Source: Aggregicoccus sp. 17bor-14 (GTDB taxonomy: Bacteria > Myxococcota > Myxococcia > Myxococcales > Myxococcaceae). Taken from it: DNA of 64,000 nt. This document shows positions 30,321 to 62,577 of the stretch, one piece after another. Position numbers and translations under genes: made by a program. Position 1 is the stretch's first letter, and each line of letters begins with the position of its first letter. Under the pieces are notes generated by a model, which was given only the letters and a program-made list of their open reading frames with translations, ran no database searches and had not been told where the DNA came from. Where the stretch lies: assembly GCF_009659535.1 (NCBI RefSeq), contig NZ_VJZZ01000005.1:62001-126000 (forward strand), read 5' to 3'.

Positions 30321-30367
30321 TCCCTCACCCCGACCCTCTCCCTCCATGAAGAGGGGGAGGGACGGGG
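30321..30367. repeat. REP-like palindromic repeat, copy B
   Basis: TCCCTCACCCCGACCCTC then CCCTCC / GGGGGAGGGA stem around ATGAAGAG. It shares the CCCTCACCC(C/T)GACCCTCTCCC core with the other copies, in the convergent gap between the small gene and the DUF2267 gene. Confidence 0.75.
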
Positions 30368-43730: not shown

Positions 43731-43770
43731 CCGTCCCCTCTCTCTCTGGGAGAGGGTCGGGGTGAGGGAC
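43731..43770. repeat. REP-like palindromic repeat, copy C
   Basis: CCGTCCCCTCTCTCTCTGGG and the mirror AGAGGGTCGGGGTGAGGGAC. It closely matches the reconstructed empty site under the IS at 61319-62539, in the gap between epimerase and phosphoesterase genes. Confidence 0.8.
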
Positions 43771-60105: not shown

Positions 60106-61284
60106 ATGGCGAAGAAGCACCATGTCTACCTCGTCCCGGGATTCTTCGGCTTCGCGAACCTGGGCGAGCTCGTGTACTTCGGGCACGTGCGCGACTTCCT
60201 CGAGGAGGAGCTGCGCCGCCGTGGGCTCGAGGCCCGCGTGCACACGGTGCTCAGCCACCCCACCGCCTCCATCCGCGCGCGCGCCGCGGACCTGCTCTCC
60301 TCGCTGAAGGAGACGAGCGGCACCCCCGAGGGGCCGGATGAAGAGAGCGTGATTCACCTCATCGGCCACTCCACCGGCGGGCTGGATGCGCGCCTGCTGG
60401 TGACTCCGGGCGCGCGCCTGGGCGAGGGCCTGGACGTGGAGCCCTGGGCCCAGAAGGTGAAGAGCGTGGTGTGCGTGGCCACGCCGCACGTGGGCACGCC
60501 GCTCGCGTCCTTCTTCCTCGGCTTCTTCGGCCACCGGCTGCTCGAGCTGACCAGCCTCTTCACCGTGTACGCGCTGCGCTTCGGGCGCCTGCCACTCTCG
60601 GTGGTGTTCCGCTTCGGCGGGCTGCTCGCCAAGGCGGACGACCAGCTGGGCTGGCGCCAGACGCTGCTGGACCAGCTCTTCGGGCAGCTGCTGAGCGACT
60701 TCTCGAAGGACCGCCAGGAGGCGCTGGTGAAGTTCTTCAAGGAGGTGGGCTCGGACACCAGCCTCATCCCGCAGCTCACGCCGCAGAACATGGACCTGTT
60801 CAACGCGGCCACGCCGGACCGCCCGGGCGTGCGCTACGGCAGCGTGGTGACGCGCGCGCGGCCGCCCTCCTTGCGCGGGCGCCTGAGCGCGGGGCTGGAC
60901 CCCTACGCGCAGCTCACCCACAGCATCTTCTCGCTCTTCTACGGGCGCGCAGGAAGGCTCAAGGAGCTGGACTTCCCGCGCCTGCAGCCCGAACAGTCCG
61001 CCGTATTGCTCAAGGCCTACGGCAAGCTGCCGCGCCCCGAGGACAGCGACGGCATCGTGCCCACGCGCTCGCAGCCCTACGGCAAGGTGATCGCCGCGGT
61101 GAACGCGGACCACCTGGACGTCATCGGCCACTTCGACGAGCCCAGCCACGCGCCGCCGCACGTGGACTGGCTCATCAGCGGCTCGGGCTTCCGCCGCTTC
61201 GGCTTCGAGCGCACCTGGCGCTCGGTGGTGGACTTCATGCTCGAGGAGGCCGAGCAGCGGCCCCCTGTCGTCTCGAGGCTGTAG
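60106..61284 (+). CDS. Lipase/esterase-like alpha/beta hydrolase
   Basis: A 392-residue protein without a signal peptide. VYLVPGFFGFANLGEL (oxyanion HG-type loop, here GFFG), the nucleophile elbow IGHSTGG, and the late ADHLDVIGHF (catalytic His region) resemble triacylglycerol lipases or lecithin-type acylesterases. A Pro/Gly-rich loop region and aromatic helices (~140-190) could be a lipid-binding lid. It starts 22-27 nt after a TAGGGT hexamer-like element with little ribosome binding site. Confidence 0.85.
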   Translation: MAKKHHVYLVPGFFGFANLGELVYFGHVRDFLEEELRRRGLEARVHTVLSHPTASIRARAADLLSSLKETSGTPEGPDEESVIHLIGHSTGGLDARLLVTPGARLGEGLDVEPWAQKVKSVVCVATPHVGTPLASFFLGFFGHRLLELTSLFTVYALRFGRLPLSVVFRFGGLLAKADDQLGWRQTLLDQLFGQLLSDFSKDRQEALVKFFKEVGSDTSLIPQLTPQNMDLFNAATPDRPGVRYGSVVTRARPPSLRGRLSAGLDPYAQLTHSIFSLFYGRAGRLKELDFPRLQPEQSAVLLKAYGKLPRPEDSDGIVPTRSQPYGKVIAAVNADHLDVIGHFDEPSHAPPHVDWLISGSGFRRFGFERTWRSVVDFMLEEAEQRPPVVSRL

Positions 61285-61300
61285 GTCCCCTCTCCCGAGT

Positions 61301-61318
61301 GTCCCCTCTCCCTCTGGG
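61301..61318. repeat. REP-like repeat, copy D, left half (split by the IS)
   Basis: GTCCCCTCTCCCTCTGGG is the left half of a REP-like palindrome; the last nine bases (CCCTCTGGG) are the left target-site duplicate. Joined to the right half at 62540-62566 it restores a sequence close to copy C. Confidence 0.8.
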
Positions 61319-62539
61319 CAGGGCGAGCGCATCTAAACTTCAGCAATTCCAGCGCTGAGCACCTGCAGGAGGTAGGCGTCGTCCCAGCCTGCCTTCTTGC
61401 GCTTGGCGGCGATGCCCGCCTTGAGGCTGGCCTCGCGCTTGAGCAGCGCGAGGGCGAGGCGCGAGAGGGCGGCGAAATTCTGCGCGCCCGCAGCGTCGCG
61501 GATGCGGCGCCTATCCTCGTTGAAGGCGACGTCCAGCACCCAGTGCAGGCCATTCTCCACGCCCCAGTGGGTGCGGATGACGTGGGCGAGGCGCGCCGCG
61601 TCCGGCGGCAGGCTGGTGAGGTAGTAGTGCACCTCGAGGCTCGCCCCGACGCCGCCGCCGCGGTGGCGCTCCACGCGCACGCAGGTGCCCGCGCCCGTCC
61701 AGCGCGGCCCCTTCAGGGGCCAGTCGGTGAGGGGCAGCGCGGAGACGCGCCGCACCTCCTCGCGCCCGTGGCCCGCGGCGTGTGTCACGTGCGTGCCCGC
61801 GGGGTGCGGCCCTGCCGCCTCGAAGAGGGCGACGACGTGCCCGTGCAGCTTCTCGCGGTTGCCCTTGAGGCACAGCACGTAGTCGGCGCCGGCCTCCTGC
61901 GCCGCGGCCGCGACGTCGCCCGTGCACCCGTTGGCATCCGCCGTCAGCACCGCGCCCTGCACGTCCAGCAGCCCGATGAGGGCGGGCAGGCCCGCGACTT
62001 CCCCCGGCGCGCCCGCTACCGCCACCTGCCCCAGCAGCAAGTCCTGCTCCGCCGCCCACGCGTGCAAGAGGTGCAAGGGGCGCAGGGCGCCGGAGGTTGC
62101 GCGCGAGAGGGCCCCGCGCACCGCCTTGCCGTCCAGCGCCACCACCTGCCCCGCCAACTCCTCGGCGAGTGCGGCCACCCACGCGCGCATGCACTCCTCG
62201 AAGCGCGCCGGGTGCAGGCTGCTGAGGACGCGGCGGAAGGTGTCCGCGCTGGGCGTGCCCTGCGCGAGGGGCAGCACCTTGCTGAAGAGTGCGCGCTTGG
62301 ACTTCGCAAACAGCGCGAGCTCATCCCAGCCGTCCGCGCCACACACGGCGCCGCACAGCGCCAGCACCAGGACGTTGAGCAGGGGGTGTCGCTTCGTGCG
62401 CTCCACCCGCCTGTCTTTCAACACCTTGAAGTTGCGCGCCACCAACTCGACGACTCGCTGTGCACTCAGCCGCTTTCGCCCCATCGGACGCCAACAGCCA
62501 AGTGCCCAGAATCTCTTTCAGTTAGATGCGCTCGCCCTG
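61319..62539. mobile_element. ISAs1-family insertion sequence, complete
   Basis: A 1221-bp element bounded by perfect 18-bp inverted repeats (CAGGGCGAGCGCATCTAA at 61319-61336 and its complement at 62522-62539) and flanked by a 9-bp direct duplication CCCTCTGGG (61310-61318, 62540-62548). Repeats starting with CAG and 8-10 bp duplications suit the ISAs1 family. One intact transposase fills it. The perfect ends indicate a recent insertion. Confidence 0.92.
61333..62484 (-). CDS. ISAs1-family transposase (H-repeat-associated type)
   Basis: A 383-residue DDE transposase with a short N-terminal H-repeat region (RRVERTKRHPLLNVLVLALCG), the first catalytic Asp in QVVALDGKAVRG, a second in VLTADANGCTGDVAAA with the family YVLCLKGNRE, and the terminal THWGVENGLHWVLDVAFNEDRRRIR carrying the Glu. 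No frameshift or stop, so it may be active. The stop codon lies inside the left inverted repeat. Confidence 0.95.
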   Translation of the reverse strand: MGRKRLSAQRVVELVARNFKVLKDRRVERTKRHPLLNVLVLALCGAVCGADGWDELALFAKSKRALFSKVLPLAQGTPSADTFRRVLSSLHPARFEECMRAWVAALAEELAGQVVALDGKAVRGALSRATSGALRPLHLLHAWAAEQDLLLGQVAVAGAPGEVAGLPALIGLLDVQGAVLTADANGCTGDVAAAAQEAGADYVLCLKGNREKLHGHVVALFEAAGPHPAGTHVTHAAGHGREEVRRVSALPLTDWPLKGPRWTGAGTCVRVERHRGGGVGASLEVHYYLTSLPPDAARLAHVIRTHWGVENGLHWVLDVAFNEDRRRIRDAAGAQNFAALSRLALALLKREASLKAGIAAKRKKAGWDDAYLLQVLSAGIAEV

Positions 62540-62566
62540 CCCTCTGGGAGAGGGTCAGGGTGAGGG
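62540..62566. repeat. REP-like repeat, copy D, right half (split by the IS)
   Basis: CCCTCTGGGAGAGGGTCAGG followed by GTGAGGG. It starts with the right target-site duplicate and carries the AGAGGGTCAGGGTGAGGG arm common to the family. Confidence 0.8.
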
Positions 62567-62577
62567 ATTGAGCGCCT

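What the first reader, a model, noticed from the sequence alone, without database searches (positions are those of the whole stretch)
61301..62566. ISAs1-type element inserted inside a dispersed palindromic repeat
The IS has perfect 18-bp ends and a 9-bp duplication CCCTCTGGG, which is the centre of a REP-like palindrome. Removing the IS restores a sequence almost identical to copy C at 43731-43770. An IS that picks such repeats as targets would avoid genes. REP-targeting is known for some other IS families, but I do not know of it for ISAs1.
Basis: partly seen in the sequence, partly recalled or inferred. Interest (0 to 1): 0.62.

Follow-up and report, generated by a model that had tools for sequence, protein, structure and literature searches.

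The report
Jumping gene that lands in palindromes
A small jumping gene (ISAs1 family) in a myxobacterium, like its near relatives in this genome and in another genus, lands in the centre of one short palindrome that is scattered hundreds of times mostly between genes, and some unrelated jumping genes in the same genomes use the same palindrome.

Summary
The IS is 1,221 bp (61319-62539) with perfect 18-bp ends, a 9-bp duplication CCCTCTGGG and an ISAs1 transposase. It splits the centre of CCCTCTCCCTCTGGGAGAGGG, a palindrome present about 236 times in the genome (control pattern: 1). This exact IS has one copy, but its close relatives were decisive. Three related ISAs1 elements (44-51% protein identity; own genome and another genus) make nine reconstructed insertions. 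All nine lie in the palindrome and eight have the 9-bp duplication exactly on its axis. None of 28 more distant ISAs1 insertions is in a palindrome, and those make 10-bp duplications. Only 4% of CCCNNNGGG sites lie in the palindrome, so its arms matter. At the 56 contig ends of the genome, ISAs1 (4/4), an unidentified element X (6/8) and an unidentified element Y (8/8) abut the palindrome, against 0/36 for all other repeats. Targeting is therefore element-specific and apparently convergent. REP-targeting is known for IS3, IS110, IS4, IS256 and IS5 (PMC1525189); I found no report for ISAs1. Recognition by the transposase is inferred, not shown.

The parts
61319..62539 (-). ISAs1-family insertion sequence, 1,221 bp
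61333..62484 (-). transposase, 383 aa; DDE triad D118, D183, E284
   Evidence: NF033564 309.5 bits; PF01609 and PF13808; conserved acidic columns
61319..61336 (+). left terminal inverted repeat CAGGGCGAGCGCATCTAA
62522..62539 (+). right terminal inverted repeat TTAGATGCGCTCGCCCTG
61310..61318 (.). target duplication CCCTCTGGG, left copy
   Evidence: D14
62540..62548 (.). target duplication CCCTCTGGG, right copy
   Evidence: D14
61301..61318 (+). left part of the split palindrome, GTCCCCTCTCCCTCTGGG
62540..62567 (+). right part of the split palindrome with its tail, CCCTCTGGGAGAGGGTCAGGGTGAGGGA
43733..43769 (+). intact copy of the same palindrome in the window (copy C), 35 of 37 identical to the restored target
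61285..61296 (+). extra half-palindrome GTCCCCTCTCCC just upstream of the target
   Evidence: D8

Best explanation
This is an ISAs1-family insertion sequence from a small subgroup, found here in two genera of one myxobacterial family, whose transposase chooses dispersed REP-like palindromes (CCCTCTCCC-NNN-GGGAGAGGG, usually with a TCGGGGTGAGGG tail) as its target. It cuts with a 9-base stagger centred on the axis of symmetry. Shown here: the insertions, their register, the separate duplication of each copy, and the specificity to certain elements. Inferred: a symmetric transposase complex reads the matching arms of the palindrome as duplex DNA, or as an extruded hairpin, so that the two cuts fall symmetrically about the axis. 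Because the palindromes lie mostly between genes and are present in hundreds of copies in both host genomes, the element can spread with little damage to the host.
For: Nine of nine reconstructed insertions of three related elements lie in the palindrome: the window IS, L022 and two collapsed copies in the own genome; five in G010, another genus. Eight of nine have the 9-bp duplication on the axis. In G010 the duplications differ between copies with identical ends (CCCCGAGGG, CCCCGGAGG, CCCGAAAGG, CCCGACGGG, GGAGACTCG) and match on both sides of each copy, so these are separate transpositions. Dyad score at the duplication averages 8.2 for this subgroup and 2.3 for 28 distant ISAs1; 6 of 7 two-sided targets give shuffle p <= 0.005 against 0 of 28 with p < 0.05. 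CCCNNNGGG sites occur 717 per Mb and only 4% are in the palindrome, so the arms are needed. Other repeats at contig ends abut the palindrome in 0 of 36 cases against 18 of 20 for ISAs1, X and Y, Fisher p = 9e-13. Both genomes holding the subgroup are among the 11 palindrome-rich genomes of 96 in the family.
Against: One G010 insertion (L018/L129, duplication GGAGACTCG) is in a variant palindrome but off the axis. One collapsed copy pairs only with a 1-mismatch duplication. The window IS itself has one copy. The grouping with L018 has modest support (89/34). No transposition assay exists, so recognition by the transposase rather than by a host factor at the palindrome is not shown. The comparison genomes tested (G645, G667, G677, G048, G011, G071) lack the palindrome, so they show that ISAs1 need not use palindromes, not that those elements would avoid this one.
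Confidence: 0.88

Rival explanations
1. The palindrome is a general hot spot: any mobile element inserts there because of its structure, supercoiling or lack of genes, with no element-specific recognition.
For: At least two other element types in the own genome (X, Y) and two more in G010 also sit in the palindrome. Palindromes lie mostly between genes.
Against: All remaining repeat types at contig ends of the own genome abut the palindrome in 0 of 36 cases. The elements that use it cut in fixed but different registers: ISAs1 bases 7-15, X bases 8-16, Y bases 10-14 of the 21-base core.
Confidence: 0.1
2. No target preference: insertions elsewhere were removed by selection, leaving the harmless ones.
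For: The palindromes are largely extragenic.
Against: Exact axes are 236 positions in 6.9 Mb; even if only about a tenth of the genome were harmless, eight hits on the exact axis are not explained. Other repeats in the same genome persist outside the palindrome.
Confidence: 0.015
3. One insertion was copied from palindrome to palindrome by homologous recombination.
For: Palindrome copies share short sequence.
Against: Each copy has its own duplication that matches on both sides and differs between copies; flanks beyond the palindrome are unrelated; shared arms are only tens of bases.
Confidence: 0.01
4. The single site is a chance coincidence in an ordinary ISAs1 element.
For: The exact IS has one copy.
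Against: Single-event chance 3.4e-5, and all near relatives repeat it.
Confidence: 0.001

Closest known systems
ISRm22 of Sinorhizobium meliloti (IS4 family in Tobes and Pareja 2006, PMC1525189)
   Same: Transposase_11 domain (PF01609 by my own knowledge, the DDE domain also found here); all copies in REPs; insertion at the axis of the palindrome
   Different: 6-bp duplication against 9 bp here; assigned to IS4, not ISAs1; different REP sequence and host
ISPpu9 and ISPpu10 of Pseudomonas putida (IS110 family; PMC1525189)
   Same: All copies in REPs; two dissimilar elements use the same insertion point
   Different: IS110 type with 2-bp duplications; IS110 elements choose targets by a bridge RNA (PMC11208160)
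IS1397 (IS3 family) of E. coli, as cited in PMC1525189
   Same: Experimentally shown specific insertion into palindromic units, with specificity ascribed to the transposase
   Different: IS3 family; different transposase class and target sequence
Other ISAs1-family elements (28 insertions in genomes related to Accumulibacter; cyanobacterial L011)
   Same: Family, CAGGG...CCCTG ends, DDE transposase
   Different: 10-bp duplications and no palindrome at the target

Membership tests
ISAs1 insertion sequence family | ISAs1-type transposase | tested here: met
   NF033564 309.5 bits against cut-off 70; relatives L018, L022, L019, L021 also above cut-off
ISAs1 insertion sequence family | terminal inverted repeats, CAGGG start as in the other members seen here | tested here: met
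   18-bp perfect repeats; same start in distant members
ISAs1 insertion sequence family | target duplication of 8-10 bp (range from my own knowledge) | tested here: met
   9 bp; distant members 10 bp
ISAs1 insertion sequence family | intact DDE catalytic triad | tested here: met
   D118, D183, E284 near-invariant in 27 sequences; assignment of the triad is by motif; activity not testable
REP-targeting IS (type 1 of Tobes and Pareja) | all copies inserted in the REP at one position | tested here: met
   9 of 9 in the palindrome, 8 of 9 in the same register
REP-targeting IS (type 1 of Tobes and Pareja) | specific insertion shown by experiment | not testable with these tools
   needs a transposition assay
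REP element | short, high-copy, extragenic, palindromic | tested here: met
   236 copies, control 1; 39 of 47 outside predicted coding DNA
REP element | GTAG or CGTC tag of the two large REP superfamilies (PMC3733652) | tested here: not met
   consensus GTCCCCTCTCCCTCTGGGAGAGGGTCGGGGTGAGGGA, read off the copies, has neither; hence called REP-like here
REP element | REP-associated tyrosine transposase (RAYT) in the genome | not tested

The most novel reading that the evidence does not exclude
The dispersed palindromes of these myxobacteria act as a shared landing platform for several unrelated transposable elements (ISAs1, X and Y in one genome; ISAs1 and two further end types in another), each cutting in its own register. 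One physical feature of the palindrome, such as an extruded hairpin or a bound host protein, would then have been adopted repeatedly as a safe harbour.
Probability: 0.35. Interest if true: 0.72.

Novelty: new member of a known kind. Interest (0 to 1): 0.52.

Why it matters
It adds the ISAs1 family to the families known to target REP-like palindromes, and gives two subgroups of one family (palindrome-targeting with a 9-bp stagger; non-targeting with a 10-bp stagger) in which to map what makes a DDE transposase site-specific. The use of one palindrome by several unrelated elements makes the question of why REP-like repeats attract transposons directly testable.

Tried and rejected
Viral contigs held no relative. 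Plasmid relatives are all under 60% identical (listed ones about 36-41%) and were not followed. The genome-contig scan gave only distant or contig-edge relatives. Two ISAs1 copies in G071 sit near small GC-rich dyads (CCCCTGCGGGG, CCCCTGGCAGGGG), but the score of the one testable site is not significant (p = 0.37) and the sites are not dispersed repeats; left open. A bias of the palindrome tail towards the transposase 5' side was looked for by eye and is not significant with so few insertions. The first tree used wrong-strand reading frames for several rows and was discarded. Element X could not be identified from its ends; small contigs C29-C38 read as N.

Full report
Observation. The window holds a complete ISAs1-type element at 61319-62539 with perfect 18-bp ends and a 9-bp duplication CCCTCTGGG. 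Its single gene (383 aa, minus strand) is an ISAs1 transposase (NF033564 309.5 bits; PF13808 and PF01609) with a conserved DDE triad D118, D183, E284. The duplication is the exact centre of CCCTCTCCCTCTGGGAGAGGG. With the IS removed, the site matches the window's intact copy at 43733-43769 at 35 of 37 positions. A 392-aa plus-strand ORF ends at 61284, and the long minus-strand ORFs beyond the IS end at 62555 or 62578, so the target seems to have been the gap between two convergent genes.

The palindrome. CCCTCTCCCNNNGGGAGAGGG with up to 2 mismatches occurs 236 times in the 6.92-Mb genome; the reversed control pattern occurs once. In a 1.14-Mb sample the consensus is GTCCCCTCTCCC(T/C)CTGGGAGAGGGTCGGGGTGAGGGA, with a tail on one side; 8 of 47 centres fall in heuristically predicted coding DNA, which covers 70% of the sample. 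In 193 genomes of the phylum it is abundant (over 100 copies at 1 mismatch) in only 11, all in the same family. It lacks the GTAG or CGTC tag of the large REP superfamilies (PMC3733652), so it is called REP-like.

Other copies, the decisive test. The exact IS is single-copy in the genome and absent at DNA level from the 95 other genomes searched in the family. A protein search found a second ISAs1 in the same genome (L022, 51% identical to the window protein) and one in another genus (L018 in G010, 51%). Both sit in the same palindrome. Because draft assemblies break at multi-copy ISs, I searched for the terminal repeat CAGGGYNNNCGCATCTNA in 96 genomes and read the flanks. Ends on different contigs were paired by their 9-bp duplications. 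In G010 this gives five insertions: CCCCGAGGG, CCCCGGAGG, CCCGAAAGG, CCCGACGGG (all perfect, on the axis) and GGAGACTCG (in a variant palindrome, off the axis). In the own genome it gives four: the window IS, L022, one with CCCAGGGGG (perfect) and one whose two sides differ by one base. All nine lie in the palindrome and eight are on the axis. Duplications differ between copies with identical ends and agree across each copy, so these are separate transpositions and not recombination products.

Controls. (a) 28 insertions of distant ISAs1 elements with perfect duplications: all 10 bp, mean dyad score 2.3 against 8.2, none with shuffle p < 0.05, against 6 of 7 in the subgroup. The genomes tested lack the palindrome, so this shows only that ISAs1 in general does not need palindromes. 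Another myxobacterial ISAs1 type (ends in G048 and G011; the G011 protein is 42% identical) also lies in unrelated sequence, in genomes without the palindrome. (b) The 9-bp core CCCNNNGGG occurs 717 times per Mb and only 4% of these lie in the palindrome, so the arms are part of the target. (c) At the 56 contig ends of the own genome, ISAs1 ends (4 of 4), element X (6 of 8) and element Y (8 of 8) abut the palindrome, all other repeat types 0 of 36; Fisher p = 9e-13. Targeting is thus a property of certain elements, not of the site alone.

Subgroup. In a maximum-likelihood tree of 27 transposases the window protein and L022 group at 98/92, L018 joins at 89/34, and L021 of G071 joins them at 100/100 on a long branch, apart from the cyanobacterial and proteobacterial members. 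The three palindrome users make 9-bp duplications, the distant ones 10-bp.

Unexpected extension. Elements X (ends GCACCCCTTTAAACCT, four insertions paired by 9-bp duplications, three in the palindrome at bases 8-16 of the core and one in a CTCCCCTTGGTGGAG site) and Y (ends CTCGTGTTTCGCC, 5-bp duplication TCTGG at bases 10-14) share no end sequence with ISAs1 but use the same palindrome. In G010, two more end types (GCGGTGAAATAGCCC; GCTGTTGATCTAGTC) follow palindrome halves, 3 of 3 each among 63 contig heads. Their families are unknown because the short contigs are masked and the ends are too short to classify.

Mechanism. Shown: position, register, independence of events, element specificity. 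Inferred: a two-fold symmetric transposase complex with a 9-base stagger docks on a two-fold symmetric target, so that the duplication is centred on the axis; the arms are read either as duplex or as an extruded hairpin. A host protein bound to the palindrome is not excluded and would also explain the use of the same site by X and Y.

Known and new. Tobes and Pareja (PMC1525189) reported REP targeting for members of IS3, IS110, IS4, IS256 and IS5, with ISRm22 (Transposase_11, 6-bp duplication on the palindrome axis) the nearest analogue; ISAs1 does not occur in that text. Searches of the held library listed no paper whose title or abstract start reports this for ISAs1; subscription papers and ISfinder were not available. 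I therefore file it as a new member of the known kind of REP-targeting ISs, in a family where I know of no earlier report.

Noticed in passing
G000 contig ends: L156, L157, L178, L197, L202, L204, L205, L213: Element X (ends GCACCCCTTTAAACCT, 9-bp duplications): three of four insertions in the same palindrome, one base off the ISAs1 register; the fourth in CTCCCCTTGGTGGAG.
   Followed up: partly
G000 contig ends: L164, L168, L172, L193, L196, L201, L210, L214: Element Y (ends CTCGTGTTTCGCC, 5-bp duplication TCTGG): eight of eight ends in the same palindrome.
   Followed up: partly
G010 contig heads L258, L259, L293 and L250, L267, L277: Two further end types (GCGGTGAAATAGCCC and GCTGTTGATCTAGTC) directly follow palindrome halves, three of three each.
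   Followed up: no
G001-G006, one search list: One genus of the family has 342-661 palindrome copies, often in close pairs about 50-115 bp apart (REPIN-like), but no ISAs1 was found there.
   Followed up: no
L021 and L023 (G071): Two ISAs1 copies in a genome without the palindrome sit at short GC-rich dyads (CCCCTGCGGGG; CCCCTGGCAGGGG, the latter with an imperfect duplication).
   Followed up: partly
window 30334-30361: A diverged palindrome copy with an enlarged loop (CCCTCTCCCTCCATGAAGAGGGGGAGGG).
   Followed up: no
L018/L129 in G010: The off-axis target carries a tandem 9-base repeat CTCGGGAGA CTCGGGAGA inside the palindrome, which might be an old excision scar.
   Followed up: no
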